64,000 nt of DNA. Origin: Lunularia cruciata (taxonomy: Eukaryota > Streptophyta > Marchantiopsida > Lunulariales > Lunulariaceae). This document shows, one piece after another, positions 6,586 to 56,000 of this stretch (its first letter is position 1; each line of letters begins with the position of its first letter). The translations under genes were made by a program, and so were the position numbers. The stretch spans positions 67,398,944 to 67,462,943 of the forward strand of contig OX419755.1 in assembly GCA_948567375.1 (NCBI GenBank), given 5' to 3'. The notes under the pieces are model-generated. The model did not search any database. It was given only the letters and a program-made list of their open reading frames with translations, and was not told the origin of the DNA.

Positions 6586-6952
6586 TGAGGTACCCATATT
6601 TTTGTTTTTTTTTCTCAATTTTGAAGAAGAAGTGTAAAGAGAAATTGAATTGTGCCTGTAAGGCCAAAGAAGGCAAAGAAAAGTGTCCTTGGGGTGTAAC
6701 CCAAGGTAACATGACTTCAGGTTAGAAGGTGAGGTACTCAGAGTTGCCTTGTCAGCATACAACCCAAAGTAAGGAGTCTTTGTCTTGGAAGTGCTCAACC
6801 CAAGGCAAGAATAGTGTAACAACTTCCCTTTGAGGCGAGACATTCAAGAAGGTACCATTCAAAAATGGCGGTCATACGCATGAAGGACACTTGACAATGA
6901 CAAGAACATGTAGAAGGTGTGCTTTCTTGGTAGAAACTTGAATGTAAGAAAG

Positions 6953-9587
6953 ACGAAGAAGGCGCGACTCTATAAAATTTGGGCTAAAGACAAAGTGATG
7001 ACAAGATATTTCCCATTGCCATTAAGAAGTCATCCTATATGAGGTCATGGGAAGGAAAGTATAGTCAAAGATGTGAGGGTGTGTCAAGCAGAAGTCAAGA
7101 GAGTTAATCCGAGAATCAATAGGAAGAATAGTCTCCAGCCCAAAGCGGAAGAGAGAAAGATAGGAGGTGGGAAGAAGAACTCTGAATCCACAATGAGAAA
7201 TCATGCGATCCGGAGGTTAGATGTGATTGCAAGAATCAAAGTCTTGAGCAAGCTTTGGTTCATATTCTTGGCATGGAATTGGAATGTTAGTTTTCTAGGT
7301 TTCATGATTGAGATCATCAAGAGTAAGTGTCTCGATGGCCCTAAAGAAGCAGGGAAGTGAGAAAATATGGCTCGATGGACAAAGTCGGATTGGAGATTAG
7401 TACTTGGAGGAGAAGCAGGCATAGAGGAAGGTGCCATGTTCTTGGGGAAGGGAGAAGTCACAGAAGAAACCCAAGAAGTGAGGGATGCTTTCTCTTTGAA
7501 GCGCACTAAGAATGGCTACAAAGTGGAGAGCTATAAGGATCTTGTCAAGAGGGGGATTGTGAGCGCTCTAATGGCAATCTTGAAGCCGGAGAGAATGACT
7601 TATGTGATGAAGCACCAAGTGGTGTTCTTCCATAAGATGTTTGTAGGAGAGCCAATTAATTGGGCAAAGTGTTTCCATCAGAGGACACAATAGATGATGT
7701 GGAATTTGCAAGACAAGTCACCGCCACATTACATTGTACCATTTGCAGCCCATTTTTATTTGAGATTGAATCTATTGAATGTGGCGGAGAGGCACAAGAT
7801 GGTGTCTCATTTCCATCTTGACTTGAGAAGAGATGCAAAGGATTGGTGCAAAGGAGCAGCAATACATCCTATAAATCAAGAGTAGCAATGAGAACTATGA
7901 GCAAATGGGGCAGAATATGCAAGTGAAGGTGAGTACTCCAAAGTCAAAGAATAAGAGTTGACAAGGAGAAGAAGAAGTAGAGAAGGCGTGACCTTGGAAA
8001 GCCAGAAGAGTGAATCCAAGGAAAGAATTGGTGGTGATTGCATCATCGGATGAAGAGTCGGAAGGAGTGGCTGAGTGCAAGTCCAAAGACTCGGAGAAGG
8101 AGGAAGAACCTAAGTTCATGCTGCAGAGTGGAGACACAAGCAGTGACAGTGAGGATAGCGGAGAGATGCAATTGGTATCCAAAGAAGAGGAAGCTAAGAT
8201 GGAGACGGCAAAGAAAGATAACTTAAAATCTGAAGACAAAGTTCCAAAGCATGAGGAAAAGAGAGTTACAATTCAGAGGTGAGTCCATTCTAGACAAAGG
8301 GCAAAGTATGAAGTGGGGCTGAGTAAGGTGAGAGAAGTGGAGAGTGGAAGTTCAGGGAGCAATGAATCCATTCCTATAAGGTGATTGCGGCTAAGAAGAC
8401 GGGTATCAAGAGAGGAAGAGACAAGGAGATTAGTCCGCAAGCCAAGGTAATTCTAAGTGAAGGAGTGGAGTATCTGCGTGAGGTTGTGTGCTCTTTGTTG
8501 GTGAAGTTAGAGCACAAGACGAAGGAGATGCAGTCAAAGTGTTTGGAGGTGAAGACTATATTGCAGGTGTTAGCTCGGTTGGAAGAAGAGAATTCGGAGT
8601 TGAAGAATAATATAACCTAAGGTGAGGAGGAAAGGGAAGTACTATGAGTAGATGTTGTAGTACAGAATCAAGTGATCAAGAACTTGAAGAGAGAAGCAAG
8701 GAGTAGAGAGGAACTCATAGAGCAGAGTGACATACCAAGGGAAAGGCAAGTAGTTGAGTACAAAATCTTGAAGCAGCAGTTTGCTGATTTGAGATTAGAA
8801 ATTATCCATGCTATGGAAAGAGTGGCGGAGAAGGAGCAAGAGCTCGATAGAGTGATGGAGAGTGTAGAAGAGAAGAAACAGCTATGGCAAAGAGAGTTGA
8901 CAGCAAGATATAGAGAGGAGGAAAGATTAAGAGAGTTGCTTCGCAACTAGGGGGAGAAGATTGTGCAGAAGGAGAAAGAGAGAAGGAGACTGTGAAAGCC
9001 AAGTTCAAAGTAGAATTGGCAATGTACAGAGAAGATTGGCTTGCAGATCGAGAACGGGAGAGAAAAATGCAACTAGAGCTATTGAAGGAGATTGTGATCA
9101 AGATGAATGCAATGCTAAGTACAGAAGCCAACGTGCAAATTAAAGAGACACAGCTACACAAGTTGAAGTTGCTGGTGCAAGAGACAAAGAGGCAAAATGC
9201 AAAGGACAAAGATTTGAATGCTTTACTTATCAGTCTCAAAACTAGTGTAGATAGGAAGATATTAGAAGTGGAAGATAATATCACGATTAGATTAGACTTG
9301 ATGAAATTAGAGATAGATTAACTTCAAAAGGATGTAAAAGCAAAACCCAAAGTAGATGACATAGGAGTCTAGATATCTTTGGAGTTATCAAGGGAGATAT
9401 TAGAGAAGAGTGGGTTGGGAGATAAAGATTTAGAAAGACTACCTGCTAATGTGATTGTAGATCAAGAAAGAGAGTATTAGAATTGGTAGAAGATTTAGTA
9501 GTTGTGAAACCCGAGGACAGAGTAGTAGTCAGTGAAGTTACTTTGGGATTGAAAGCTGAGGAAGAAGTTGACATTGGATCAGATTAG
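6953..9587 (+). pseudogene. U3-encoded ORF in A2 5' LTR (globular domain plus coiled coil), decayed
   Basis: A frame of about 2.6 kb is broken by several stops and frameshifts but co-linear with the frames at 15156-19674, 21058-23669 and 53485-56077. It begins at an ACG where A3 has ATG. The N-terminal third carries SDWRLVLGGEAG, KNGYKVESYKDLVKRGIVSAL, and FFHKMFVGEPINWAKCFHQ. The middle (about 7900-8400) is rich in E, K and S. The last third (8670-9320) is a long coiled coil with EKEQELDRVMESVEEKKQL-type heptads. The frame ends EEEVDIGSD. Function is unknown; the N-terminal layout vaguely recalls plant transposon-associated domains found in gypsy env-position ORFs, which is a guess. Confidence 0.75.
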
Positions 9588-9702
9588 TAACAATTTTGAG
9601 ATATGACGAGGCAGATATGAAGAGGTGCATTGTCATTTTGTATCTACAGGTTAGAAGAATTGTTAGGAAATGGTATAGTTGTTAGAATTGTCATTTGCTT
9701 CA

Positions 9703-9711
9703 CTATTTAAG
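9703..9711 (+). promoter_or_regulatory. TATA-like box of family A LTR
   Basis: CTATTTAAG follows 'gcttca' and lies about 680 bp from the LTR end. The same box is at 19790-19798, 23787-23795, 56193-56201 (CTGTTTAAG) and about 39575 (TATTTAAG), and inverted near 15873 (CTACTTAAG). Its conservation and position suggest the R region starts just downstream, leaving the upstream ~3.1 kb, including the ORF, as U3. Transcription start has not been shown. Confidence 0.5.
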
Positions 9712-10392
9712 AGTGACTTTTGCAGTGAAATGTTGTTCAATGCTCATTATTTGTGAGGATAGATAAAGCAAAGTGCTGATTTCAATGCTTGTCGCTTGAG
9801 CTTGATTCCGACTATCCACTTTGTGATTGTGTTTATGAGTGTGTGGAGAAATTTGAAGTGCAAGTCAATGTGCATGTTGGATGTTGGATTTTGTAGCCTT
9901 GATCTTTACTCCGTGTGTTTGATCCTAAGTGAAGTGCAATCAAAGCAATGCCTTGATAGATCTGAGAGGAATTGTAGTGTTGGTAGTATTCTGCATTTGT
10001 GAGTGCAGTGCAAAGTTGATGTGAAGCAATTTAGATCAAGGAAGTTGTGCCTTTAGTAGAGGAGTAGAACACAATTCTGAGGGGAAGTCGTTTTGTAGTG
10101 AAGTGCAATTTTCAGGAGAGCTTGAATCATCACAATCAAGATTGTTTGGAAAGATTTGATGGAGTTGTGATTGAGTGTGATAAATTGTTGTGACAAGACT
10201 ACAAATCAGTGCTTGTTACTCTCTTCTGGGTGTGGTTTCTACCTGAGAGATTAAAGACACAACCAAGAAGAATTGAAGATTGTTACTGTTTGACTTTGTA
10301 TTTGACCAATTATGACTAGTATCTCTACGGGAATGAACTTTACTTACCTAATCACCGCAAAAGTGATATTTGCCAGGTTTTCATATGATTTT

Positions 10393-10410
10393 TGGTGCCA
10401 CTACCAGGGA
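10393..10410 (+). other. A2 primer binding site (tRNA-Asp type)
   Basis: TGGTGCCACTACCAGGGA lies 7 bases after the 5' LTR. It matches the TGGCGCCGTTGCCGGGGA site used by many plant gypsy elements (complementary to the 3' end of tRNA-Asp), except for a few changes that fit C-to-T and G-to-A decay. Confidence 0.75.
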
Positions 10411-10419
10411 TACAAATCT

Positions 10420-12026
10420 TGGAAGTAGAAGAATACAAAGCCAATTTCAAAACTAGGTGTCAAAGCAATATGAATTTCTGCACCGAGAGAACAATGGGAA
10501 GAGAGAGTTCAAAGACAAACGTTGCATCGTGAAGAAGAAGAACACCTAAAGATCCAATCTACTTTTGACAAAACTGAACAAGAGGCATTGGACTTTCAAC
10601 TTCTTCAAGAAGTGCAAGAAGCCATGCGAGAACTTGACCAAAAGAAACGTGAAGGTAGTTGGCAAGGCTACTTTGCATCCCCATCTTCCAAGAAGAAAGA
10701 CTCAAGCGGCCAGGCATATTCATTATGGCCCAGTGCACCGACTTCTCCTCTTTGTAAAGGAAGTTGCATCTCTAAAGAACTTTGTTTGAGAAAAGACAAC
10801 ACGGACACTAACGGAAGAAGAGTGTCAACACCTTCTACAAACAATTCCTTGATTGTCTTGAAGGAATTTTGAAGAACACTCTGAAGGTGTTGAGCTTGAT
10901 TCTTCCACTCGGATTGAAGTCAACACCCTCAGAGAAGACATTGTCAAAGAAGACCCATCTTTGAACTTGACCAATTGGAACCCCAAGGCTATCAACACGG
11001 TGTCAATACCAGCCAGCTCCTCGGTTCTTTCAAGTTCAAACTTACCCTAGCCGATCCCATCAAGTCAAACAATGACTTCATTGCCTATCACCTGACACGC
11101 CTATCAAAAATACAAGGGGATAGAATAAGACAAAGATCTTGATGAATTCATTGAAGAATTCAAAGTCATCTCCTTTGCCAATAAGGAACATGACCTGGCG
11201 GATTGATTGCGCATTTTCCCCAGTTTGCTCCGAAAGAAAACTCGGAGTTGGTACACTCATGTAACCCAAAAAGAGGTTTGTACCGACGGACTGGGCAGAC
11301 TTGAGAAACAATTTCCTGGAACAATTCCGGGAAGTTGATTACAATACGAGTGTCTTTGCAGCAATCAACAATTTAGACCGAGGTAAGAAGGAGAAGTTGA
11401 GAGACTACTCTGAGCCGTTCATGGCACTTTTGAACTGAGTTCCGAAGCCGTCGGGTGTGGTGGGTTACTCCAATGCCCAAGCTATCACCTGGTTCCTGGG
11501 AGGACTCTCACTAGAGATTCAAATCTTTGCAAGGGAGAGGAATGTAACTTCCTTCGACAAGGTACTCAAACATGTTGCCCGCTATGAGGCGGCTCACTCT
11601 CACTCTGTCGGCAATCAAAGAAACCGGGAGAAGAAAGGCAAGAAGCCCAAAAGAAGAGCTTCTTGTAGTACATTCCCTTCTTTGGAGGAATCTTCCATGT
11701 CTTCAAGCTCTTCTTTGGAATCCAAAGAAGGATCAAAGCCAATACGAGTACAAAGACGTGGGGGTAAGAAACCAGTGACTCCCCCAACAAAGAGTGTACA
11801 TAAGGTTGATACCAAGCTGGATGCCCTCATCAAGGAGCTTTTGGATTTTAAGATCCAGATGAGGCTGCGCCCAAAGGCAATCCTTTTTGCCAAGGACGAA
11901 AAGATCCTCGCAAAAGCCAAAGCTAAATCCTTGCAAAAAGAACTCAAGGAAGCGATACTCAGAACCCGGGAATTGAGTTTGGAGGAGATGAAGATAAAGC
12001 TTCTAGTTTATCCGGTAGATATCTGA
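10420..12026 (+). pseudogene. A2 gag
   Basis: Gag pieces lie in several frames. A charged N-terminal part is at 10522-10872. A region around 11100-11330 contains the LRIFPSLLRKK and WYTHV gag core motifs. The clean frame at 11457-12026 encodes WFLGGLSLEIQIFARER, then KRNREKKGKKPKRR-like basic tracts, an S-rich stretch and a C-terminal coiled-coil-like segment. Gag would form the virus-like particle. I see no CCHC knuckle. The frame stops at 12024-12026, about 60 codons before RT starts. Confidence 0.8.
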
Positions 12027-12029
12027 TCC

Positions 12030-12990
12030 AAAGTGAAGGGTTTGATCCAAGCCAAGGTGGGCCCACCCAAGGAACCACAAGGTATTCCACAAGAATTTGG
12101 AGAACACCGGATTGATCTAGTTGAAGGCACAGTTCCGGTTTGGCAGAGACAATACCGTCTTAATTCAAAGTACTCCCTCTTGGTGAAAGACAAAATCAAT
12201 AAGTACTTAGGGGCCGGAATAATCTTTCCTATCTTAAGCAGTGAGAGGGTCTCTCCCATTGTCATTGTCATTGTTCCAAAGAACAAAACAGGGATGATCC
12301 AAGTGCGCCAAGATTTCTGCAAGTTAAATGCAGTCACAAGGAAGGATCATCATCCCTTGTCTTTTACCAATACAATTTGGACCAAGTAGTTGGTCACCCT
12401 TGTTATAGTTTTCTTGATGGATTTTTGGGATACAATCAAGTGTCCATCCGAGAAGAGGACAAGGATAAGACCACATTCATGACCAATTAGGGCACTTTTG
12501 CTTACAATCAAATGCCTTTTGGGTTGTGTAATGCTCCAGCTACTTTCCAATGAATGATGAATTCAATCTTCAAAGATTTCTTGTGCAAATTTGTGGAAGT
12601 TTTCATTGATGATTTTTGTGTGTTTGGGCAAAGAGATGTACATTTGGATTACTTTCACCAAACTTTTGAAAGGTGTCATTTTGCCGGTCTATGATTACAC
12701 CAGGAGAAATGCTTCTTTGCAATGAAGGAGGGAATTCTTCTAGGGCATTGGGTGTCAAGTCGAGGTATTGAAGTCAATGTCAAGAAGGTCAAAGTAATCT
12801 CAGCTTTAGAATCCTTGAAGAACATCTAGGAGCTGAGAGCCTTCTTGGGACATGTTGGATACTACAAATGCTTTGTTTCAAACTATGCGGTGCTTGCTGC
12901 ACCCCTTACAAAGCTTCTAAAGAAATCCAAAGACTACTTGTGTGAAGCAAAGCAAGAAGAAGCTTTCTAGGTATTGAAGAAGAAACTGGT
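12030..12990 (+). pseudogene. A2 reverse transcriptase
   Basis: The frame opens with the EFGEHRIDLVEGTVPVWQRQY block, which in gypsy elements marks the start of RT. The KNKTGMIQVRQDFCKLNAVT block follows. After a stop at 12388 the sequence continues with FGLCNAPATFQ-type residues near 12520 and the catalytic FIDDF at 12602-12616. It then has HQEKCFF, LGHWVSS and LRAFLGHVGYY. Several stops occur (near 12388, 12552, 12690, 12828). No aspartic protease is recognisable between gag and this frame. Confidence 0.88.
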
Positions 12991-13468
12991 TGAAGCATCA
13001 GTCATGAGAGCCCCAAATTGGGATGTCCCTTTTCATGTATATGTGGATACTTTGTCCATGGCAATCGGAGTTGTCTTAAGTCAGAAGGACAAGAAAAAGA
13101 AGGACTACCCGGTTTATTATGCCAACCAATAACTTTTTGTCTCAAAAAAAAACTATTCAACGACTGAAAGAGAAGCACTCGGAATTGTTTATGCCTGCAA
13201 GAAATTTTGCCACTACTTGTTGGGATACGAGTTTGTCTTCTATGTTGACCAATACTCATTGCAACATTTGGTCAAGAAGGCAGATTTGTCTGGGCAAATT
13301 GCAAGATGGATCTTGTTGTTACAAGAATTCACATATATTATACAAGTGAGGAAGGGAGCTTTGCATTTGAATGAGGACTTCTTGTCCAGGTTAGAAACTC
13401 AAGACCAAGAATGGGAAATCAACAATCGGTTCCTTGATGAAGAGTTATATCAATTAACATCAATGTGA
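12991..13468 (+). pseudogene. A2 RNase H
   Basis: VPFHVYVDTLSMAIGVVLSQ begins the domain. KNYSTTEREALGIVYACKKF follows an in-frame stop near 13130. Then come YVDQYSLQHLVKKADLSGQI and ALHLNEDFLSRLE. The usual TDH motif reads VDQ here, so a catalytic-region residue has changed. It sits in frame order between RT and integrase, as in Ty3/gypsy. Confidence 0.87.
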
Positions 13469-13499
13469 AGTACAAGGTATGCAGCCAAATATCATTATC

Positions 13500-14720
13500 T
13501 GCATACTCTCCATTGTCTTGAAGGGCTGGACCCGGAGCAAAGGGCAGTCTTTCTCAGGAAAATGGGGCCGTATCAGCTAAAACACAGCATTCTATTCAAG
13601 ATGCGCAAGATGAAGTACTTCGGCGATGCTTGGAGTCATACAAAGTCGGAGGCGTAATTGAGTCTTTACACTCCAAAGCATTAGGAGGACACTATGCTCT
13701 GAAGAATGTTATAAAGAAGATTCTTTCTTTGGGGTACTGGAGGCCTACAATGTACAAAGACACGCATGCCCATATTCAAACTTGTGATGCTTGTCAGAGA
13801 ACGGGGAAACCGATGGCTACTTCCCAATGGCCTTTGAGACTAATTTTGCCCTTGGCCCCATTGGAGAAATGGGGAATTGATTTTGTGGGACCAATACAAC
13901 CGGTAACCAGAGTCACAAGGAAATGCTACATTTTGGTTTGCATGAACTATGCTACCAAGATGGTTGAAGCTGAAGCAACTTGCAGAGATGATGCAGAAAC
14001 CGTTGCGGAATTTTTCTATAGGAACATCATCTCCCAATACGGATGTCCTCTGGAATTGGTCAGTAATAGAGGGACACATTTTTTGAACTCTATGATGGAG
14101 GCATTAACAAAATATTTCCAAATTAAACATTGGAAGACAACTCCTTATAACCCAAAAGCAAATGGCTTAACGGAAAAAGTGAAATGGTTACTTTGCAAAC
14201 ATCTGAATAAGATGAATGTCAATTATGCATATGATTGGGATACAAAATTACAAGCCGTGTTGTGGGCCTATTGAACAGCAAAAAAGATCACAACCAAGCA
14301 AACTCCATACTTCTTGACATACGGCTTGCACCCCATATTACTAGTTGAATTTGAAGTCCCGACATATCGGATTCTTTGCAAAGAAAGATTGTCAGAAGAA
14401 GAAAGTCAAGAGCTTTGAATCCATCAATTGATGTGGTTAGAAGAGAAAAGAGACAATGCAATGCAAACCACAAAAGAAGTACAAAAATAGAGGAAGTTTA
14501 GGCACAATAAGCATATCAAGCCTATAACTACTTGCAAAGGAGATTTGGTTTTGTTATACAACAATCACCAAAAAAATTTCTAGGCAAGTTGCATTTGAGA
14601 TGGATAGAGCCTTATCAAGTTCTTCATCTTTATGAAAATGGGTCCATTCAACTTGTAGACCTGGAAGGCAATCCTTTTGCCACTTGAGTAAATAGGTGGA
14701 GAGTTTGGAGATATTGAACC
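13500..14720 (+). pseudogene. A2 integrase
   Basis: A 214-codon open frame (13630-14274) holds the HHCC zinc finger (HSKALGGHYALKNV with CDACQ) and the catalytic core. The first Asp is in WGIDFVGP, and the last acidic residue is Glu in NGLTEKV. The second Asp is replaced by Asn in LVSNRGTHF (normally SDRGTHF), which would abolish strand transfer. After a stop at 14272-14274 further frames continue to a C-terminal domain at about 14580-14720 (LRWIEPYQVLHLYENGSI). No chromodomain was seen. Confidence 0.9.
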
Positions 14721-14778
14721 ATAGACTTGGAAGTCTCTAAGACACCCAAAGTCTATGTTTGCGGGGACGCTCACATTT

Positions 14779-14789
14779 GAGAGAGGGGG
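14779..14789 (+). other. A2 polypurine tract
   Basis: GAGAGAGGGGG followed by TA directly precedes the 3' LTR start at 14792, as expected for the plus-strand primer. Confidence 0.8.
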
Positions 14790-15155
14790 TATGTGGTACC
14801 TATATTTTATTTTATTTTCAATTTTGAAGAAGAAGTGTACAGAGAAGTCAAACTGCGCCTGTATGGCCAAAGAAGGCAAAGAAAAGTATCCTCGAGGTGT
14901 AAACTAAGGTAACGTGACTTCGGGTTAGAAGGCGAGGTACTTGGAGTTGCCTTGTCAACATACAACGCAAAGTAAGGAGTCTTTGTCTTGGGGGTGCTCA
15001 ACCTAAGGCAAAGATAGTGTAGCAACTTCCCTTTGGGGCGAGACATTCAAGAAGGTACCATTCAAAAATGGTGGCCATACACGTGAAGGACACTTGATAG
15101 TGACAAGAGCATGTAGGAGGTGTGATTCCTCAATAGAAACTCAAATTGAAGAAAG

Positions 15156-18100
15156 ATGGAGAAGGCGCGACTTTATAAAATTTGGGCTAAAGACAAAGCA
15201 ATGTGTGACAACCCGGCAAATATCACTTTTGCGGGACTCGGATAAGTAAAGTTTGTTCCCGCAGAGATACGAGTCAGAATTAGTCAAATACAAAGCAAAC
15301 AGTAACAATGTAGTTCTTCTTGGTTGCGTCTTTAATCTCTCAGCTAGAAACCACACCCTGAAGAGAGTAACAAGCACTGATTCGTAGTCTTGTTACAAAT
15401 TAACACTCCATAATCACAACTCCATCAAATCTTTCCAAACAATCTTGATTGTGATGATTCAGGCTCTCCCAAAAACGGCACTTCACTGCAAAACAACTTC
15501 GCCTCAGAATTGTGTTCCACCCCTCCACTAAAGGCACAACTTCCTCGATCAAAATTGCTTCACATCAACTTCGCACTGCACTCACAAATGTAGAATACTA
15601 CCAACACTACAATTCCTCTCAGATCTATCAAGGCATTGCTTCGATTGCACTTCACTCAGGATCAAACACACAGAATGAAGATCAAGGCTGTGGAATCCAA
15701 CATCCAACAAACACTCTGACTTGCACTTCAAATTCTCAAAACACTCACAAACACAATCACAAAGTTGATACTCGGAATCAAGCTCAAGCGACGAGCACTG
15801 CTTCACAGCACTTTGCTTTATCTATTCTCAAAAATAATGAGCACTGAACAACATTTGACTGAGAATGCCACTCTTAAGTAGTGAAGCAATCGACAATTCT
15901 AACAACTATACCATTCTACAACAACTCTTCTAACCTGCATATCCAAAATGACAATGCACCTCTTCATATCTGCCTCTTTAAATCTCAAATTGGTTTCTAC
16001 TCCATTTGATGTCTACTTCTTCCTCGGCTTTCAAACCCAAACCCGAAGTAACTTTACTTCCTAATATTTTGTCTTTGGGTTTCTTTACTCCTAATTCCTC
16101 CACTAATTCTAACATTTCTCCTTCCTGATATGAAATTCCTATCACAATTAAGTCTTCTAAATCTCTATCTCCCAACCCACTCTTCTCTAAAGTGTCAAAT
16201 GTCAAATCCGAAGACACCTGCACTCCTATCTCTCTTACCTCGGGTTTAACTACTATCAATTCCTTTACTAATTCTATTGTGTCATCATCAAGAATTGTAA
16301 TTGAAAGCATGGGTACACTATCTACACCTTCAATTTGTAACCCACTTTCCCCTAATCACTCATGTTACTAACCTGAAGACACTTACTGTCTGATCCTGCA
16401 CATCGGGTTTATTCACTACTGTTAATTCTACTTCAATTCATGTTCCATCTTCAATTAGAACTGAAATTGAAGTCATGGGTATTCTAACTATCTTCTTTCT
16501 CTATTCTAACTTCCTCTGATCCTTCCTGCAAAACTCCCAAAGTCACCTTCACTGCACTCTAAGGTCTGGTTACCTCTGATTTAGTCATCTTGAAGCAAAG
16601 TCTTTAGACCCGAAGTCATATAAACCCGAAGTCCGAAGTACGAAGTCCGAAGTCACATTGACCCGAAAAACCTCAACCCGAAGTACATCTACTCTCAAAA
16701 CTTCAAATGCTTGTAACTTCTTCTACAGACCTTCAAACTTTGCGATTTTGGTGGCAATGGAAAGCCTTGAACAAGACGCTTCCAACGAGATATAACAAGA
16801 TTGATTCGGAGTTGTGGTCACTGAGATATAGCCCCCGCAAGAATCCTGACCTGCAACCTCCCTTCCTCCTTCGGCGTCTAATCCGAGTTTTTCCTCCTCT
16901 GACACGAAGTAAATTTCTTCGGGTTTGATCTAGTCTGAGTCATTCTTCCTCTTACATGAAGTCAACTTCCTCAAGTCTGATCAAAACACAAGTTTGCACT
17001 CATTTCTTTTCCATTTGGTTTCAATTTGGTTTCAGTAAGGCATTTCTTCTTCAAAACTCGTCCAAAATGAAAAATGTGGGTACCACACGATGACAAGAAA
17101 TTTCCCATTGCCATTAAGAAGTTGTCCTATAGGAGATTGTAGGAAGGGAAGTATAGTCAAAGACGCATTGGTGTGTTGCGAGGAAGTCAAGAGAGTTAAT
17201 CCGGGAATCAGTAAGAAGAATAGTCCCCAGCCCAAAGTGGAAGAGAGAAAGATGGGAGGTGGGAAGAAGAACTCCAAATTTGTAGTGAGAAATCATGCGA
17301 GTTGGAGGTTAGATATGATCGCAAGAATCAAAGTCCTGAGCAGGCTTTGGATCACATTCCTGGCATGGAACTGGAATGTTAGTTTTCCAAGTTTCATGAC
17401 TGAGATCATCGAGAGTAAGTGTCTCGATGGCCCTAAAGAAGAATGGAAGCAAGGAAATCTGGCTCAATGGACAAAGTCGGATTGGAGATTAGTACTTGGA
17501 GCGGAAGCAAGCACAGAGGAAGGTGCGATGTTCTTGGAGAAGGGAGAAGTCACGGAAGAAACCCAAGAAGTGAGGGATGCTTTCTCTTCAAAGCGCACGA
17601 AGAATGGCTACAAAGTAGAGAGCTATAAGGATCTTGTCAAGAGAGGGATTGTGAGCGCTCTAATGACAATCTTGAAGCCGGAGAGAACAATTTATGTGAT
17701 GAAGTACCAAGCGGTGTTCTTCCATAAGATGTTTGTAGGAGAGCCAATTAACTGGGCAAAGTGTTTCCATCAGAGGACGCGATAGATGATGTGGAATTTG
17801 TGGGACAAGTTGCCAACACATTACATTGTGCCATTTGTAGCCTATTTTTATTTGGGATTGAATCTATTGAATGCGGCAGAGAGGCACAAGATGGTGTCTC
17901 ATTTCCATCCCAACTTGAGAAGAGATGTTGATGCAGAGGAGCAGTAATACATCCTGCAAATCAGGAGTAGCAACGAGTACTATGAGCAGACAGTGCAGAA
18001 TGTGCAAGTGAAGGTGAGTACTCCAAAGTCAAAGAAGAGGAGTCGACAAGGAGAGAAGAAGAAGTAGAGAAGGCGCGACCTCGGAAAGCTAGAAGAGTGA

Positions 18101-19674
18101 ACCCGAGGAAAGAATTGGTGGTGATTGCATCATCGGATGAAGAGTCGGAAAGAGAGGCTGAGTGCAAGTCCAAAGACTCGGAGAAGGAGGAAGAACCCCA
18201 GTTCATGCTGCAGAGTGGGGACACAAGCAGTGATAGTGAGGATGGCAGAGAGATCCAATCGGTACCCAAAGAGGAGAAAGCTAAGATGGAGACGACGGAG
18301 AAAGATAACTCAAAACTAGAAGATGAAGTTCTAGAGCAGGAGGAAAAGAGAGTTACAATTCAGAGGGGAGTCTATTCCAAACAAAGGGCAAAGTATGAAG
18401 CGGGGCCGAGTAAGGTGAGAGAACAAGAGAGTGGAAGTTTGGGGAGCAACAAATCCATTCCTATAAGGCAATTATAGCTAAGAAGGCAAGTATTGAGAGA
18501 GGAAGAGACAAAGAAGGAGATTAGTCCGCAAGCGGAGGTAATTCTGAGTGAAGGAGTGGAGTATCTATAGGAGGTTTTGTGCCCGTTGTTGGTGAAGTTA
18601 GAGCACAAGAAGAAGGAGATGCAGTCAAAGTATCCGGAGGTGAAGACTGTATTGCAGGTGTTAGCTCGATTGGAAGAAGAGAACTTGGAGTTGAAGAAAA
18701 ATATAACCCAAGGTGAGGAGGAAAGGAAAGTACTACAAGTAGATGTTGTAGTATAGAATTAAGTAACTGAGAACTTGAAGAGAGAAGCGAGGAGTAGAGA
18801 GGAACTCATAGAGCAGAGTGACATAGCAAGGGAAAGGCAAGTAGCTTAGTACAAAATCTTGAAGCAGCAATTCATTAATGCAAGATTAGAAATTATCCAT
18901 GCTATGGCAAGAGTGGCAGAGAAGGAGCAAGAGCTCAATAGAGTGATGGAGATGGTAGAAGAGAAGAAGCAACTCTGGCAAAGAGAGTTGACAACAAGAT
19001 ATAGAGAGGTGGAAAGGTTAAGAGAGTTACTTCGCAACCAAGAAGAGAAGATTGTGCAGAAGGAGAAAGAGAAGGAGACTATGAAAGCCGAGTTTGAAGC
19101 GAAGAAGCAGAGCAAAGAAGATTGGCTTGCAGATCAAGAACAGGAGAGAAAAATGCAACTAGAGCCATTGAAGGAGATCGTGATCAAGATGAACGTGATG
19201 CTAAGTACAAAAGCAAGCATGCAAATTGAAGAGACACAGCTACACAAGTTGAAGTTGTTGGTGCAGGAGACAAGGAGACAAAATGTGAAGGAAAAAGATT
19301 TGAATGCTTTACTTATCAGTCTCAGAACTCGTGTAGATAGGAAGATATAAGAAGTGGAAGATAATATCACAATTAGATTAGACTTGGTGAAATTAGAGAT
19401 AGATAAACTTTGGAAGGATGTAAAAGCAAAACCCAAAGTAGATGACATAGGAATCCAGATATCTTTGGATTTACCAAGGAAGATATTAGAGAAGAGTGGA
19501 TTAGGAGATAAAGATTTAGAAAGATTACCTACTAATGTAATTGTAGGTCAGGAAAGAGAACTATTAGAATTGGTAGAAGATTTAGAAGTTGTGAAACCCA
19601 AGGACATAGTAGTAGTGAGTGAAGTTACTTCAAGATTGAAAGCCGAGGAAGAAGTTGACATCAGATCGGATTAG
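15156..19674 (+). pseudogene. U3-encoded ORF in A2 3' LTR, interrupted by a short A element
   Basis: The frame begins ATG GAG AAG at 15156. It is cut after 16 codons by the inserted element and resumes at 17093. The frame 17090-17785 encodes the N-terminal domain (231 codons), 18097-18477 the acidic linker, and 18859-19350 the coiled coil with EKEQELNRVMEMVEEKKQL. The end, 19354-19674, closes with EEEVDIRSD. Stops separate these blocks. This copy lies downstream of pol and the polypurine tract, so it would be the copy present in a genomic transcript. Confidence 0.75.
15204..17087 (-). mobile_element. Short family A LTR variant (1884 bp), nested in A2 3' LTR
   Basis: On the minus strand it begins TGTGGTACCCACA and ends GGTTGTCACA. 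Flanks caatg (15199-15203) and cgatg (17088-17092) form a 5-bp duplication with one G-to-A change at a CpG. The uninterrupted A2 5' LTR reads across the site (gtgatgacaag near 6998). It carries only the C-terminal tail of the U3 ORF (minus 16310-15978). In place of the rest there is a segment rich in GACTTCGG-like repeats (16610-16690) and a module shared with the family E LTR (16705-16860). Confidence 0.88.
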
Positions 19675-20473
19675 TAACAGTTTTGAGATATGAAGAGGTA
19701 AATATGAAGAGGTGCATTGTCATTTCAGATCAACAAGTTAGAAGAATTGTTAGGAAACGGTATAGTTGTTAGAATTGTCATTTGCTTCACTATTTAAGAG
19801 TAGCATTTGCAATGAAATGTTGTTTTGTGCTCATTATTTCTAAGAATAGATAAAGCAAAGTGTTGATTTTAGTGCTCATTGCTTGAGCTTGATTCCGAGT
19901 ATCCACTTTGTGATTGTGTTTGTGAGTGTGTGGATAAATTCAAAGTGCAAGTCAATGTGCTTGTTGGATGTTGGATTCCTTAGCCTTGATGTTTTACTCT
20001 GTGTGTTTGATCCTGAGTAAAGTGCAATCAAAGCAATGCCTTGATAGATCTAAGAGGAATTGTAGTGTTGGTAGTATTCTGCATTTGTGAGTGTGGCGCA
20101 AAGTTGATGTGAAGCAATTTTGATCAAGGAAGTTATGCCTTTTGTGGAGTGGTAGAACACAATTTTGAGGTAAAGTCATTTTTCAATGAAGTGCCATTTT
20201 TTAGAGAGCCTAAATCATCACAATCAAGATTGTTTGGAAAGATTTGATGGAGTTATGATTAAGTGTGACAAATTGTTGTGACGAGACTGCAAGTCAATGC
20301 TTGTTACTCTCTTCTGGGTGTGATTTCTACCTGAGAGATTAAAGATGCAACCAAGGAGAATTGAAGGTTGTTACTATTTGACTTCATATTTGCCTAATTC
20401 TGACCAATATCTTTGCGGGAACAAACTTTACTTACCTAATTACTACAAAAGTGATATTTGTTGGGTTGTCACA

Positions 20474-20689
20474 AAACCCAATTCAAGTAAGCCTCTCCTT
20501 TTCCCTCAATCTCTTGCTCTCAAAGGTCAGTGGACATGAACTTTCCTTATGTTCCTTCTCTCCACATAGAAAGCACTTAGACTCACTCTTCTCTCCAAGT
20601 GGCGTAGGTTTTTGGATCCTCTCAACACTCTCTTCAAATTCTACTGTAAACTCTCTTTTCCTCAAATCCACTCCTACAATTACCTCAAA
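20474..20689 (-). pseudogene. Element B pre-gag ORF, C-terminal half with CCHC motif
   Basis: This 216-bp piece of element B lies between A2 and A3. On the minus strand it encodes the second part of a small ORF, ending at a stop at 20483, with CFLCGEKEHKESSC, a CX2CX4HX4C zinc knuckle. Its reading frame joins exactly, across A3 and one copy of the TCAAA duplication, to the frame starting at Met 24634. See the separate entry for that half. Confidence 0.7.
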
Positions 20690-23600
20690 TGTGGTACTCA
20701 CATTTTTTGTTTTTTTTGAAATGGAGAAGAAGAAGTGTATAGAGAAGTCGGATTGCACCTATATGGCCAAAGAAGGCAAAGAAAAGAGTCTTTGGGATGA
20801 AACCCGAGGTAATGTGGCTTTGGGTCATAAGGCGAAGTACTTGGACTTGCCATGTCAGCATACAACCCAAAGTAAGAAGTCTTCGTATCAGGGGGTGCTC
20901 AAACCAAGGCAAAGATAGTGTAACAACTTTTCTTTGGGGCAAGAAATTCAAGAAGGGACCGTTCCAAAACCGGTGGTCGTACGTGTGAAGTACACTTGAC
21001 AGTGACAAGCGCATGCAAGAGGTGTGATTTCTCAATAGAAACTCAAATTGAAGAGAGATGAAGAAGGCAAGACTCTATAAAAATTGGGCTAACGATAAAG
21101 CAATGTTGAGCAATTTTCCTTTGCCGTTGAGGAATCGTCCTACAGGAGATCATGGGAAGGGAAGTAGAGTTGAAGACGCGCTAGTGTGTAGAGGAGAATT
21201 CAAGAGAGTAAACCTGAGAGACAGTGAGGAAGCAAGAAAGATAGGAGGAGGAAAGAAGAAATCCAAATTCATTGTGAGAAATCATGCGATTTGGAGGTTA
21301 GATGTGATCGCAAGAATCAAAGTCTTGAGCCGACTTCGGATCACATTCTTGGTATGGAATTGGAATGTGAGTTTTCTTGGATTCATGACCAAGATAATCA
21401 AGAGTAAATGTCTCGATGGCCCCAAGGAAGAGGGGAAGAGAGGAAATCCAGCTTGTTGGACAGAGTCAGATTGGAGATTAGTACTCAAAAGAGAGGCAGG
21501 CACGGAGCAGGGTGCCACGTTCTTGGGGAAGGGAGAGGTAGCCAAAGAAACCCAAGAAGTGAAGGATGCCTTCTCTTTGAAGAGGACAAAGAATGGGTAC
21601 AAAGTAGAGAGTTACAAAGATTTGGTCAAGAGAGGGATTGTGAGTGCTCTCATGGCAATCTTGAAGCCGGAGAGAATGACTTATGTGATGAAACACAAAG
21701 CGGTGTTCTTCCATAAGATGTTTGCATGAGAACCCATCAACTAGGTGAGGGGCTTCCATGGGAGAACAAGGTAGATGTTGTGGAATTTGCGGGATAAGTC
21801 ACCTCTACATTACATTGTGCCGTTTGTAGCACATTTCTACCTTGGGTTGAATTTGCTCAATGCGGCAAAGCGCAACAGAATGGTGTCACACTTTCATCCT
21901 AACTTGAGAAAGGAAGTCGACACGGAGGAGCAATAGTATATTCTTCAGATCCGAAGCAGTGATGAGTAGTACGTGCAGACTAGGAAGAGTGCGCAGGTAG
22001 AATTAAGTACTCCAAAATCAAAGAAGTGGAGTCAACAAGGAGAAGGCAAAGATGTAGAGAAGATGAGACCTCGGAAGACTAGGAGAGGAAACCCAAGGAA
22101 AGGTATGGTGGTGATCACGTTGTCGGAAGAAGACTCGGAGGGCAAAGCTGAGTGCAAGTCCAAAGACTTGGAACATAAGGAAGAACCCAAGCTTACATTA
22201 CAAAGTGAGGATACAAGTAGTGATTGCGATGAAGGTGGGGAGATGACGTCAGTGCCTGCAGAAGAAGAAGAAGTTTAGGTGGAGCTCGAGGAAGAGAGTA
22301 ACACAAAGTTGGAGGACAAAGTGCCCGAGCCCGAGGAGAAGAAGATTACTATTCAAAGAGGAGTTTGGTCAAGGTGCAAGGCAAAGTGTGAAGCGGGTCC
22401 AAGCAAGGCAAGGGAAGAGGAGAATGCCAGTTCAAGAAGTGAAGTGTCTATTTTGATACGACAACTACAAAGAAGAAGGCAAGTATCGGGAGAAGAAGAG
22501 GTAAAGAAGGAGATCACTCCGCAGGTTGAAGTAGTCATGAGTGATGGAGTGGAGTACTTGCAAGAAGTTGTGTGTCCTCTATTGGCAAAGCTAGAGCACA
22601 AGAAGAAGGAGATGCAGTCAAAGTGTCCGGAGGTGAAGACTGTGTTGCAGGTATTAGCAAGACTGGAAGAAGAGAACGCGGAGTTGAAGAAGAGTATAAC
22701 TGAGGTGAGGAGGAAAGGGAAGTACTACAAGTGGATGCAATAGTGCAGAGTCAAGTGATTGAGAACTTGAAGAGAGAAGCAAGGTATCAAGAGGAACTTA
22801 TGAAGCAGAGTTACATAGCAAGGGAAAGACAAGTAGCTGAGTACAAAATCTTGAAGTAGCAGTTTGTTGATTCAAGACTAGAAATTATCCATGCTATGGC
22901 GAGGGTTGTAGAGAAGGAACAAGAGCTCGATAGAGTAATGGAGAGTGTAGAAGAGAAGAAGCAACTGTGGCAACGGGAGTTGACAGTGAGATATAGGGAA
23001 GAAGAGAGATTATGAGAGTTACTTTGTAATCAGGAAGAGAAGGTTGTATAGAAGGAGAAGGAGAAGGAAACTCTGAAAGCCGAGTTTGAAGCAAAATTGG
23101 CAATGTACCGGGAAGATTAGCTTGCAGATCAAGAGCACAAAAGGAATATGAGATTGGAGCCATTGAAGGAGATCGTAATCAGGATGAATGCGATGTTAAG
23201 TACAGAGGCCAATGTTCATATTGAAGAGACGAGGTTGCACGAGTTGAAGTTGTTGGTGTAGGAGACAAGGAGGAGACATGCAAAGGATATAGATTTGAAC
23301 GCATTGTTGATTAGTCTCAGAACTCGTGTAGATAGGAAGATATTAGAAGTGGAAGATAATATCACAATTAGATTAGATTTGGTAAAGTTGGAGATAGATA
23401 AACTTTGGAAAGATGTTAGAGCAAAACCCAAAGTAGATGAAGTAGGAGTGCAGATGTCTTTGGAGTTACCATTGGAGGCATGAGAGAAGAGTGGGTCAGG
23501 AGATAAGGAGTTAGATAGATTGCCCACTAGTGAAATGTCAGATCAGGAAAGAGAACTATTAGATTTGGTAGAAGATGTAGGAATTATGAAACCCGAGGAC

Positions 23601-24464
23601 AAAGCAGTAGGAAGTAAAGTTACTTCGGGATTGAAAGCCGAAGAAGACATAGACATTGGATTGGATTAGTAACCAATTTGAGATTTGAATAGGCAGATAT
23701 GAAGAGGTGCATTGTCATTTTGGATCTGCAAGTTTGTAGAGTTGTTAGGAAGAGGTGCATTAGGAAGATAACTATTGATTGCTTCACTATTTAAGAGTGG
23801 CATTTGCAGGCTTATGTTGTTCAGTGCTCATAATTCTGAGAATAGATAAAGTGAAGTGTTGTGAAGCAGTGCTTGTTGCTTGAGCTTGATTCCAAGTATC
23901 AGCTTTGCAATTGTGTTTGTGAGTGTGTGGAGAAATTCAAAGTGCAATTCAGTGTGCTTGTTGGATGTTGGATTCCACAACCTTGATCTTCATTATGTGT
24001 GTTTGATCCTAAGTGAAGTGCAATCAAAGCAATGCCTTGACAGATCTGAGAGGAATTGTAGTGTTGGTAGTATTCTACATTTGTGAGTGTAGTGCAAAGT
24101 TGATATGAAGCAATTTAGATTGAGGAAGTTGTGCCTTCAGTGGAGGGGTAGAACACAATTCTGAGGCAAAGTTTTTTTCAGTGAAGTGCCGTTTTTGGGA
24201 GACCCTGAATCATCACAATCAAGATTGTTTGGAAAGAGTTGAAGATGTTGTGATTAAGAAGTGTTAATTTGTGACAAGATTAAGAATCAGTGCTTGTTAC
24301 TCTCTTCTGGGTGTGGTTTCTACCTGAGAGATTAAAGACGCAACCAAGAAGAACTACATTTTTACTGTTTGACTTTGTATTTGACCAATTCTGACTCGTA
24401 TCTTTGCGGGAACAAACTTTACTTACTCTATTACCGCAAAAGTGATATTTTCCAAGTTGTCACA
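20690..24464 (+). mobile_element. Family A single LTR (A3), 3775 bp
   Basis: It starts TGTGGTACTCAC, ends AAGTTGTCACA, and is flanked by perfect 5-bp duplications tcaaa (20685-20689 and 24465-24469). The length matches the A2 LTRs and no internal region is present, so it is a solo LTR left by recombination. It lies inside element B, and removal restores a B reading frame. Confidence 0.93.
21058..23669 (+). pseudogene. U3-encoded ORF in A3, best-preserved N-terminal half
   Basis: Starts at ATG 21058 with MKKARLYKNWANDKAML. The first 223 codons are open to a stop at 21729 and contain SDWRLVLKREAG, GYKVESYKDLVKRGIVSALM and FFHKMFA. The same frame then continues past stops near 21745-21970 into 21973-22278 (acidic, K/E-rich linker) and 22279-22743. 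After a frameshift a coiled coil follows (about 22790-23480). The tail ends AEEDIDIGLD at 23669. About 870 codons if intact. The function is unknown; the coiled coil suggests self-association. Confidence 0.78.
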
Positions 24465-24634
24465 TCAAACCCTTTGGGAACCTTGCATAGTCTCAATTTC
24501 CACTCTTGATGACCCTCCATGTTCCAAGATGAATCTAAACACTCAAAAATGCTTTTGTTGCTCTCAAACTCCTCATGCATGAGATCTAAACTTTGTAGAA
24601 TTGACCTTTCCTCACTTTCACTCAAATCTCTCAA
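24465..24634 (-). pseudogene. Element B pre-gag ORF, N-terminal half
   Basis: Starts Met 24634 (MRDLSESEERSILQSL) and stays open to the A3 insertion. Joined to 20684-20483 it makes one 123-codon frame ending in a zinc knuckle. It precedes gag in the element B leader, after the primer site. The protein matches nothing I recognise. It may be an extra nucleic-acid-binding ORF or a captured fragment. Confidence 0.65.
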
Positions 24635-53068: not shown

Positions 53069-53073
53069 TTTAT

Positions 53074-56000
53074 TGTGGTACCTACATTTTTTGTTTTTTT
53101 TAAATAAAGAAGAAGAAGTGTATAGAGAAGTCGGATTGCGCCTGTATGACCAAAGAAGGCGAAGAAAAGAGTCTTCGAGATGAAACCCGAGGTAATGTGG
53201 CTTTGGGTCATAAGGCAAAGTACTTGGACTTGCCTTGTCAGCATACAACCCAAAGTCGACTTTGGGTCAAGACGTGAAGAAGAACCCGAAGATAAAGACG
53301 GAGAGAGAGAGACTTCGTATTGGGCGGCACAAGCGGATCCAAAGAACTTGTAACAAAATTCTTTGGAGTCGGCGCAATCAAGAAAGTACGGAGGAAGAAA
53401 GTATTGACCTCGGGAGCAAGAACTTCTTGATGACAGGCAACAACTTCACCGAATCAAAAATTTGAGAGGAGGAGACACAAAAGAGTGGCTGATTGGCATA
53501 GGACTATAAAATTACACATTGCGCAAGAAGAAGGAGCAATGTCCAGTTGCTACCCGGTGCCTATTCAGAGTCAACCCAAAGTAATGCAAATTGCAAATCC
53601 GCAGGAAGAGGAGTGGGTTAGGATTTCGGGGACAATCTTCCACAAGAGAAAAGTGAGGAAGCACACAATAGCATCGAAAGTGAGCAAGCAGAGTGCAGTG
53701 AGAGGGCTTGCAATTTGTTGATTAGAAGTAATAGCGCGGATCTAAGTCTTGACAAGACTTTGTATCATGTTCTTGGCCTAGAACTGGAATTTCAGTTTTC
53801 TAGGTTTCATGGTAGAAATTGCAGCAAGCAATTGCAAGGATGGGCCAAAGCATGAAGGGAAGAGAGGGAATCCCGCTCGATGGATAGAGGCGGATTGGAG
53901 AGTAGTGTTGGGAAGGGAAGCTGGAGAGGTAGGAGGTACCACCTTATATCAGAAGTGTGATGCTTCAGAGAGACTACCAAAGTAAGGAAGTTGTTCAATT
54001 GACTCCGCACTAAGAATGGGTATAAGGTGGATAGTTATAGAGACCCTGAGCGGAGAGTAATTGTAAGCACAATGATGGCTATGTTCAAACCACAGCAAAC
54101 CACCTATGTTACTATGCAACAGGCAGTGTTCTTTAACCAAATGTTTGCAAGAGAGGCAGTAGATTGGGCAAAATGCCTGCATCAAAGAGTGGAGCAGATG
54201 ATTTTAGGATAGAGAATGGATATGCCACCACATTATTTTGTGCCATTCACAAGGCACTTTTATTTTGGGTTGAACTTACTGACTTTGGAAGAGCAAAGTC
54301 AAATGCGGTTGCACTTTCATCCAGATTTGCGCAAGGAAGCCAACGCAGATGAGCGATATTATATGGAGAGAGTGCAAGAGGGGGATAGGTACTACAAAGA
54401 GAGTGGGAGAGAAAAGATCATAGCAATTGACCTTCCAAGGGCGCAAAAGAGGACCAAGCTTGAGAGTTGTGTTGCGACAATACAACCCCAGAAAGTTCCA
54501 AAGCTTAACCCGACGGCGGTGATAGTGAAGATGAAGGAAGTCGTGCAGGAAGAAGAAGAATCGGAAGGAGAAACCGAATTGAAGGAAGGAGTGTCAGGCA
54601 AAGAAGAGGAGTATACGCTACAAAGCAAATAATCAAGTAGCGACAGCAAAGGTGAAGTGGAGGTTCAGCAAGTGATACAGCCAATGAAAGAGGTCGGAAG
54701 GCTGAGTCCCGAAGTTTCCATGATGGAATGGGGCAGTGAGAAGAAGAAAGGAGAAGACGGCAAAGCACAACCTCAAGCTGCAAAGCGTGACAATGGCCTG
54801 AGTGTATCTGCAATGGGGCCTAGTAACCTTACTCGGAAAGAGGGAGAAAGTTTTGAGGAGGAAACTTTGAAGGTGCAAAGATCTCGACTTCGGGGCAAGG
54901 TACCAAATGTAGAAGAGTCGGAACCCAAAGTCCGAGCCGAGGATGCAAAGTGCAAAGGAGTGGACTATTTGTCCAAGGTGGTATGCCCGTTGTTGACAAT
55001 GTTGCAGCAGAAGAAGATGGAGATGATAAGTGCAAAGCTTGACATACCAGATGAATTAGCAGTGGTAAAAACCTAGAGTGTCAAAACCTCGTTGTTCCAA
55101 AGTAAGCTGACAAGAGTGGAGATAGGGGTTGAAGAACTTTGGGTTGAGGAGGTTCTTTGGAGTAAGCACTTCAAGGCGACAAGGGAAGAGTTGGTAAAGA
55201 ATCGTGAGATGAAGTGAAGGAGATGATTGTGATGATTGCGGGATTAAAAGGAGAACTTGCAGCGGTGTGTGTCAAATTGATACACTCCAAGGCAATTGCT
55301 GCAGTGATGGAGCAAGAGTTGGAGAGCCTTAAGAAGAGGGCAGTGGAGAAAGATCAGGCCTGGCAACGAGAGTTGACGGAGCATAGTAGAGAAGAAGATC
55401 GGTTGAGAGGGTTGATGCAAGAGGCAAAGGAACAACTCTTTGTACATCAGAGGGAGAAGGAAGCATTAAAAGCTGAATTTGAAGATGAGCTTTAGATGTA
55501 TCATAGTGAATTGGACAAAGAGAGGAAGAAGGAGAAGTTTACGGTGGTGGAAGAAACTAGTGACGTAAAAGGTGTCATCAATGAAATTAAGGCCATGCTA
55601 AGTACAAAAGTGGAATGTAAACTCGAAGAGGTAAGGTTGCATGAGCTAAAGTTGCTAGTGCAGGAGACGCGCAAGAGGAAGGTGAAGGATACCGAATTAA
55701 ATATTCTCTTAATCCGGCTAGGAGATCGTGTAGATAGGAAGATGTTGGAGATGGGGTACAATGTGTGTCTCAGACTAGACCTTATGAGGACGGAGTTAGC
55801 TAAACTTTGTAGTGAGGTAGAAGAAGTACGAAGACCCAAAGTAAGAGAGGTAGGAGTGCAGGTGTCTTCGGATTTGACATTTGACACTTTAGAGAAGAGT
55901 GGGTCGGGAGATAGAGATTTAGAAAGGTTAACTATGATAGGAATTGCATATCAAGAAGGAGAAGTGGTAGAAGTAGTGAAGGAATTGGTAGAATCAGATA

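What the first reader, a model, noticed from the sequence alone, without database searches (positions are those of the whole stretch)
6586..20473. Long LTRs of family A carry a ~2.6-kb reading frame inside the LTR
Each full A LTR (two in A2, plus A3 and A4) holds a co-linear frame with the same architecture: N-terminal globular domain, acidic/basic linker, long coiled coil, and a tail ending in DxVDI-S/L-D. Protein-coding genes inside plant LTRs are uncommon. The coiled coil and conserved order across copies suggest a real product of the ancestral element. I do not recognise the family, so this may be an undescribed retrotransposon accessory protein.
Basis: partly seen in the sequence, partly recalled or inferred. 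Interest (0 to 1): 0.87.

Follow-up and report, generated by a model that had tools for sequence, protein, structure and literature searches.

The report
Selected protein gene inside retrotransposon LTRs
A very numerous family of jumping elements in what looks like a liverwort genome carries a gene for a protein of about 880 amino acids inside its end repeats, and that gene was kept working by natural selection while the family spread, which is unusual for plant elements.

Summary
Four family-A LTR copies in the window carry one co-linear reading frame of about 880 codons. It lies inside the LTR proper: solo LTRs A3 and A4, and 7 of 12 scorable genomic copies, have exact 5-bp target duplications around an LTR that contains it. 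No window copy is intact. Copies show third-codon-position excess in every piece of the frame tested and none in the flanking LTR DNA. On internal tree branches the ratio is 2.2-4.6; on terminal ones 1.04 in the N-terminal part and 1.4-1.6 elsewhere. So the frame was selected while elements moved. Eight of 8 elements picked for long integrase frames carry it at the place of the 3' LTR; two have uninterrupted stretches of 879 and 824 codons; dN/dS is about 0.2, like integrase. No family-level match was found in Pfam, NCBIfam, PDB sequences or a large protein set that does hold liverwort retroelement proteins. Best reading: a U3-located accessory gene of a Ty3/gypsy family, encoding a coiled-coil protein that may act in trans. 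U3 placement, expression and function are inferred. Extra ORFs in plant Ty3/gypsy elements are known; a conserved one wholly inside the LTR did not turn up in my searches.

The parts
6586..10386 (+). 5' LTR of element A2
6953..9587 (+). LTR frame, copy in A2 5' LTR (broken; no ATG at 6953)
10393..10411 (+). primer binding site, decayed; relatives L063 and L081 show a tRNA-Asp-like site at the same place (tRNA identity recalled)
10387..14791 (+). interior of A2: gag 11283-11507, RT 12344-12751, RNase H 12950-13330, integrase 13522-14271; between LTR and integrase it is roughly 1.8 kb shorter than in two relatives (L063, L081)
   Evidence: relatives
14779..14789 (+). polypurine tract next to the 3' LTR
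14792..20473 (+). 3' LTR of A2, interrupted by an insertion
15156..19674 (+). LTR frame, copy in A2 3' LTR: ATG at 15156, tandem stops at 19672-19677; interrupted by 15204-17087 and broken
15204..17087 (-). inserted solo LTR of related family B (1.9 kb), target duplication CAATG/CGATG (one mismatch); keeps only the tail of the frame (16005-16256)
17090..17944 (+). N-terminal domain of the frame (A2 3' LTR)
17986..18474 (+). acidic/basic linker of the frame (A2 3' LTR)
18571..19347 (+). long-helix (coiled-coil) region of the frame (A2 3' LTR)
   Evidence: homologous A4 stretch folded
19351..19674 (+). tail of the frame and first stop (A2 3' LTR)
19791..19798 (+). TATA-like TATTTAAG; candidate core promoter placing the frame in U3 (inferred)
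20690..24464 (+). A3, solo LTR, target duplication TCAAA (20685-20689 and 24465-24469)
21058..23669 (+). LTR frame, copy in A3 (broken)
53074..56869 (+). A4, solo LTR of a diverged subfamily, target duplication TTTAT (53069-53073 and 56870-56874)
53485..56077 (+).

Best explanation
Each full family-A LTR (about 3.8 kb) carries, or descends from one that carried, a true protein-coding gene of about 880 codons of a Ty3/gypsy retrotransposon. SHOWN: the frame is inside the LTR, one ancestral frame runs through its parts, and it was under purifying selection while elements were transposing, at a strength like that of integrase; inserted copies then decayed with much weaker or no bias. INFERRED: it lies in U3, because a TATA-like site and an LTR block shared even with family B come after it. 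The genomic RNA would then carry it once, as the last gene before the poly(A) site (the place of env, or of U3-encoded retroviral genes). Reverse transcription copies that U3 into both LTRs, so each insertion brings two copies and each solo LTR keeps one. INFERRED, weaker: the product is an oligomeric accessory protein (basic N-terminal domain, charged linker, helix of 100+ residues, acidic tail) that helps the family multiply and can act in trans, since one recently inserted element and a shortened LTR family moved without an intact frame of their own. My preferred roles are relief of silencing or particle/RNA handling; I cannot choose between them.
For: Inside the LTR: solo LTRs A3 and A4 with exact 5-bp duplications; of 20 fetched copies (L039-L058) 12 had both ends, 7 of those have a perfect duplication at the exact inferred termini, 1 more only with a shift, 4 have one mismatch. 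One frame: in L041, L043, L048 and L057 all pieces lie in one frame; a stop just before the frame is at the same place in 6 of 8 copies printed, and tandem stops end it in 4 of 4 window copies. Selection: third-position excess in 6 of 6 coding pieces, none in 2 of 2 flanking pieces; position 3 over mean of 1 and 2 on internal branches is 3.75, 2.70, 4.62 and 2.24 against 0.84 and 0.86 in the flanks, on terminal branches 1.04, 1.56, 1.44, 1.59 against 0.88, 1.15; same with topology taken from other pieces, 3.80 and 7.62 against 0.79, and in 20 codon bootstraps of N 2.37-5.16. dN/dS median 0.21 within 7 relatives, 0.16 between them and 7 older copies; integrase of 8 relatives 0.31, against A2 0.15. 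Carriage: 8 of 8 elements picked for long integrase frames have it at the place of the 3' LTR, with uninterrupted stretches of 879 and 824 codons in two; in L061 the whole LTR aligns to A3. Helix: 111 residues in one helix, most blocks with pLDDT over 90. Trans action: L061 element, LTRs 99.1% alike over 347 bp, has a broken frame; B LTRs keep only the tail.
Against: No RNA, translation or function data. No copy was shown to be perfect end to end: the 879-codon stretch has a part where the homologous reading is in another frame, the 824-codon one stops early. For those eight elements the LTR ends were not checked. Within the A4 subfamily (8 copies) there is little or no third-position excess, which I read as one recent burst but which is also what loss of selection would give. 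The L061 element transposed with what is now a broken frame, so the gene may not be needed in cis. One search hits were ranked by protein score and L039-L058 chosen for a stop-free N piece, which could favour low dN in N; the other pieces were not used for ranking and show the same. Terminal branches of Lk, C and T are not free of bias (1.4-1.6). The N-domain model is poor (pLDDT 42), so no fold is known. U3 placement rests on a consensus-like site found in A2, A3, B, L061 and 11 of 20 loci but not in A4.
Confidence: 0.85

Rival explanations
1. The frame was selected in the past but is now a relic: recent elements have dropped the need for it, and it persists because it lies in the LTR.
For: L061 element is recent yet its frame is broken; little or no third-position excess within the A4 group of 8 copies; 6 of 8 relatives have stops or shifts.
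Against: Two of 8 relatives have 879 and 824 open codons; among 7 relatives dN/dS is 0.21, so selection reached into their recent ancestry.
Confidence: 0.2
2. A host gene or gene piece was captured into an ancestral LTR and is carried along, with selection acting for the host rather than for the element.
For: The protein has no match to known retroelement families, as expected for an arbitrary capture.
Against: Selection is on internal branches of the transposon tree and largely stops after insertion, which fits element-level, not host-level, selection. The 150 scored genome matches other than the query itself are 74-82% alike, like one repeat family; they were not checked one by one, and a distant single-copy homologue would not be among them.
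Confidence: 0.07
3. Not a gene: open stretches and apparent conservation come from composition or shared ancestry of repeats.
For: All window copies are broken; the repeats are related anyway.
Against: Third-position excess only inside the frame and strongest on internal branches; dN/dS about 0.2; 879 codons open.
Confidence: 0.02
4. The repeats are not LTRs of this element but a gene-bearing block next to shorter LTRs.
For: The LTRs are unusually long (3.8 kb) compared with family B (1.9 kb).
Against: Terminal TG...CA-type ends, exact target duplications, primer site and polypurine tract border the whole 3.8-kb unit.
Confidence: 0.01

Closest known systems
Extra ORFs (eORFs) of plant OTA (Ogre/Tat/Athila) Ty3/gypsy elements, Neumann et al. 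2019 PMC6317226 (passages read)
   Same: Non-gag-pol ORF of at least 250 codons in plant Ty3/gypsy elements; eORFs are heterogeneous, 314 groups in Ty3/gypsy, and only 21.4% match CDD; non-chromoviruses use non-Met primers
   Different: [quoted passage not shown] the passages I read do not place them in LTRs. The domains named there (plant mobile domain, Transposase_28, Athila ORF-1) were not hit here
ORF0 of rice Retrosat2 / RIRE3 / RIRE8, PMC3485330 (passages read)
   Same: Ty3/gypsy with LTRs of about 3 kb or more and an extra conserved ORF of unknown function with Ka well below Ks
   Different: ORF0 lies upstream of the gag-pol ORF, not stated in the passages to be in the LTR; found only in grasses there; sequences were not compared here
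U3-encoded genes of retroviruses, such as mouse mammary tumour virus sag (recalled; not compared by sequence)
   Same: A protein gene inside the U3 part of an LTR, present once at the 3' end of the RNA and duplicated into both LTRs
   Different: A plant retrotransposon with a different protein architecture; U3 placement here is inferred; no homology is claimed
[not shown]
   Same: Liverwort elements without a second RNase H; only one RNase H was found in A2
   Different: No phylogeny was made here; the passages mention no LTR-internal gene

Membership tests
LTR retrotransposon | direct LTRs with TG...CA ends and a short target duplication | tested here: met
   A3 TCAAA, A4 TTTAT; 7 of 12 scorable copies exact, 1 more only shifted, 4 with a mismatch; A2 AAACT/AAACC, one mismatch
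LTR retrotransposon | primer binding site after 5' LTR and polypurine tract before 3' LTR | tested here: met
   tRNA-Asp identity is recalled
Ty3/gypsy | gag, then RT-RNase H-integrase in that order | tested here: met
Chromovirus | chromodomain after integrase | tested here: not met
   none in the Pfam scan of the A2 interior, three plus-strand frames; one decayed copy only
Tat (canonical) | second (archaeal-type) RNase H | tested here: inconclusive
   [not shown]
OTA (Ogre/Tat/Athila) lineage | position in an RT-RH-INT tree | not tested
   no reference set was at hand; only the primer type and the missing chromodomain point there
Known eORF protein families (plant mobile domain, Transposase_28, Athila ORF-1) | match to their Pfam profiles | tested here: not met
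   no such match at E up to 1 for 6 copies and 3 long open stretches, nor for the window pieces at the thresholds used
PF20167 (Transposase_32) | profile match or shared fold of the N-terminal domain | tested here: inconclusive
   no hmmscan match; resemblance of pattern is recalled only; genome scan with the family did not complete; fold model too poor
U3-encoded accessory gene | gene lies between the LTR start and the transcription start | tested here: inconclusive
   TATA-like site and a block shared with family B follow the frame; no transcript data

The most novel reading that the evidence does not exclude
The LTR gene encodes a trans-acting factor (for example one that relieves silencing of LTRs, including those that lack an intact copy) that drove Ty3/gypsy bursts and so enlarged this liverwort's genome; every insertion and every solo LTR would spread the factor's gene.
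Probability: 0.15. Interest if true: 0.88.

Novelty: new variant of a known kind. Interest (0 to 1): 0.7.

Why it matters
LTRs are usually treated as non-coding. Here an 880-codon gene under selection sits wholly inside them, in a family with very many copies (20,099 first-look candidates, of which only 150 were scored). It means that solo LTRs, normally counted as regulatory scars, can each carry a gene copy; that the gene is doubled and made uniform at each cycle; and that LTR annotation may miss such genes. It makes testable whether a plant retrotransposon can spread by a protein supplied in trans from its LTRs.

Tried and rejected
Homology: a full-length read-through of one copy (7,205 candidates, none at E 0.001) and a six-copy alignment (the 7,995 candidates sharing most words, none at E 0.01) found nothing. 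The control, A2 integrase, found 215 proteins, 120 listed; those named with an organism are Marchantia polymorpha, Riccia fluitans, Riccia sorocarpa and one moss (Physcomitrium patens), so the set holds liverwort retroelement proteins; an unannotated LTR frame would still be missed. PDB sequences: one hit at E 0.79.

Weak Pfam hits not taken up, all below the curated cut-offs: RNA_pol_Rpb4 (E 0.00081), BIG2_C (0.0067), YwqJ-deaminase (0.0078) and two weaker ones on one A3 piece of the linker and helical region, YwqJ-deaminase again at 0.06-0.07 in L070 and L066, XRN_M 0.77, three others at 0.06-0.14. They were not consistent across copies. NCBIfam: one hit at E 0.07.

Fold: the N-domain model from nine window pieces was too poor to search (pLDDT 42); no fold search was made. 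The tail model gave a long helix.

A stop shared by 11 of 51 compared copies (and the reference copy) at the end of the N piece looked like possible recoding; the other 40 have a sense codon there, and it fits decay at a methylatable site, so recoding was dropped.

L070 and the LTR upstream of it are 89.7% alike with third-position bias, so those two LTRs probably come from lineages that diverged before insertion; that element was not used for dating. The stretch expected to hold the 5' LTR of the L068 element did not.

Full report
WHAT IS THERE. The window lies in a 566-Mb genome held as 74 contigs; of the contigs whose lengths I saw, eight are 60-85 Mb. A2 (6586-20473) is a Ty3/gypsy element: 5' LTR 6586-10386, interior with gag, RT, RNase H and integrase, 3' LTR 14792-20473. 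Its 3' LTR is split by 15204-17087, a solo LTR of a related family B on the minus strand, with target duplication CAATG/CGATG. A3 and A4 are solo LTRs with exact target duplications TCAAA and TTTAT. A primer site follows the 5' LTR; in two relatives it reads like the complement of a tRNA-Asp end (the tRNA name is recalled), and a purine tract precedes the 3' LTR.

THE FRAME IS INSIDE THE LTR. In A3 the LTR runs from 20690 to 24464 and the frame from 21058 to 23669. Of 20 genomic copies fetched with flanks (L039-L058, chosen because their N piece had no stop), 12 had both termini in hand; 7 have a perfect 5-bp duplication exactly at the inferred termini, 1 only with a total shift of two bases, 4 have one mismatch at the best shift; 8 lacked an end. 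So the transposed unit whose ends the integrase joined contains the frame.

ONE ANCESTRAL FRAME. With the A2 3' LTR pieces as queries, the parts N, N2, Lk, C1, C2 and T are co-linear in most of the 60 loci then held; in L041, L043, L048 and L057 all lie in one frame. Of 8 copies whose stops were printed, 6 have a stop at the same place just before the frame (L044 two codons later; L059 was cut differently). Tandem stops end the frame in 4 of 4 window copies. Frame changes differ between copies and are common around the low-complexity linker. A stop shared by 11 of 51 compared copies sits where the other 40 have a sense codon.

SELECTION. One search scored 150 of 20,099 candidates with the N piece; 21 of the 150 rows, the window's own included, list no stop in it (my count of the table). 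I aligned each reference piece to 48 non-redundant loci (L010-L060 less three duplicates) and window copies; rows covering less than 75% of a piece were dropped and A4 was left out. Differences by codon position: N .112/.110/.186, N2 .130/.110/.252, Lk .157/.167/.276, C1 .112/.102/.197, C2 .131/.102/.223, T .144/.107/.212; flanking pieces .172/.144/.149 (upstream, including the first 48 coding bases) and .135/.158/.153 (downstream). Branch lengths per position on fixed trees: internal ratio of position 3 to the mean of 1 and 2 was 3.75 (N+N2, 51 copies), 2.70 (Lk, 48), 4.62 (C1+C2, 41), 2.24 (T, 20), against 0.84 (upstream flank, 48) and 0.86 (downstream flank, 20); terminal ratios 1.04, 1.56, 1.44, 1.59, 0.88, 1.15. 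With topologies from other pieces (38 copies): N 3.80, C 7.62, upstream flank 0.79; 20 codon bootstraps of N gave internal 2.37-5.16 and terminal 0.66-1.41. This is the pattern of a gene selected in moving elements and released on insertion. The terminal excess of about 1.5 in Lk, C and T may mean that some terminal branches include selected time.

Across subfamilies, A4 against A copies has dN 0.24-0.45 and dS from 1.04 upwards or saturated in 7 piece comparisons; A4 against the tail of the 39-kb B copy has dN 0.38, dS 0.57. Within the A4 group (8 copies) the five coding pieces show little or no excess (for example .108/.119/.124 in the largest.094/.091/.126 in the strongest.113/.105/.116 in the flank), which gives no support for selection within that recent group.

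RELATIVES WITH LONG INTEGRASE FRAMES. Integrase of A2 found 150 scored matches of 29,538 candidates. I first looked downstream of two listed with long open frames and no stop (L061, L062): both carry the frame next to the integrase end; in L061 the whole LTR aligns to A3; in L062 the frame is cut short by another repeat. I then took eight more from the same list: 8 of 8 carry the frame at the place of the 3' LTR (LTR ends not checked); uninterrupted stretches reach 879 codons in one, where part of the homologous reading is in another frame, and 824 in another, which ends early; the other six have stops or shifts. NG86 values: 7 relatives that span all segments (of 10), 21 pairs, dN 0.065, dS 0.321, median ratio 0.21; relatives against 7 older copies 0.169/1.095, 0.16; older pairs 0.116/0.495, 0.27. 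Integrase of the eight, 28 pairs: 0.032/0.103, 0.31; against A2 0.080/0.535, 0.15. The LTR gene is thus about as constrained as integrase.

AGAINST A STRICT NEED IN CIS. The L061 element's LTRs agree at 99.1% over the 347 bp of 5' LTR that could be compared, yet its frame is broken. B LTRs keep only the frame's tail. Both fit supply in trans, or a gene no longer needed by some lineages.

WHAT THE PROTEIN MAY BE. N-terminal domain basic, linker 45% charged, C1 heptad score above 200 shuffles, C2 high but within them, the other A2 pieces not raised; the A4 tail piece models as one helix of 111 residues at high confidence. No Pfam or NCBIfam match reached its cut-off (weak ones are listed under Tried and rejected), PDB sequences gave one hit at E 0.79, and the protein set none, while the integrase control shows that the set holds liverwort retroelement proteins. 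A resemblance of the N-terminal domain to plant transposon-protein domains such as PF20167 is recalled and not confirmed by hmmscan.

WHERE IT SITS IN THE TRANSCRIPT. TATTTAAG lies 677-683 bp before the LTR end in A2 (both LTRs), A3 and L061, TACTTAAG in B; the wider pattern was seen in 11 of 20 loci (8 of which lack an LTR end) and the site not in A4. A 154-nt block after the frame is 88-91% alike in six copies, family B included, and the stretch after the frame has short internal branches (0.17-0.21 per position class, 20 copies, against 0.50 for third positions of T, 20 copies; the two sets were not checked to be the same). I infer a core promoter there, hence a U3 gene.

HOST. Organism names among the 120 listed integrase relatives are liverworts and one moss; Lunularia cruciata has a 580-Mb assembly enlarged by Ty3/Gypsy bursts (PMC9985172, passages). 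That this genome is L. cruciata is a guess.

LITERATURE. The listings of searches showed no plant element with a conserved gene inside its LTR (two returned nothing; 27, 42 and 78 were cut lists); passages were read of PMC3485330, PMC6317226, PMC9985172, PMC10508981 and PMC12885004. The library holds open-licence papers only, so this is weak evidence of novelty.

Noticed in passing
window 1-635: End part of another LTR of the same kind (84-92% to A and B LTR ends) with no primer site right after it; a truncated copy.
   Followed up: partly
window 2405-6030, minus strand: A different Ty3/gypsy element with gag, weak protease, RT and RNase H matches; 92.5% match over 1.4 kb in L062.
   Followed up: partly
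window 38369-40046: Second family-B-like copy (76% to the insertion at 15204-17087) that keeps only the tail of the frame; its end was not resolved.
   Followed up: partly
window about 61328-63767, plus strand: Host gene for RNA polymerase III subunit RPC5, spread over three frames (Pfam RPC5, best E 6.8e-19).
   Followed up: partly
window 52309-52880: Tandem duplication of about 286 bp, 94.8% alike, just upstream of A4.
   Followed up: no
window 36661-36978: Repeat units spaced 80 bp, related to 28128-28285.
   Followed up: no
L070 and L081: 3' LTR and upstream LTR differ by 10% with third-position bias (dN 0.061, dS 0.271), so they probably come from lineages that diverged before insertion; possible recombinant element.
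   Followed up: partly
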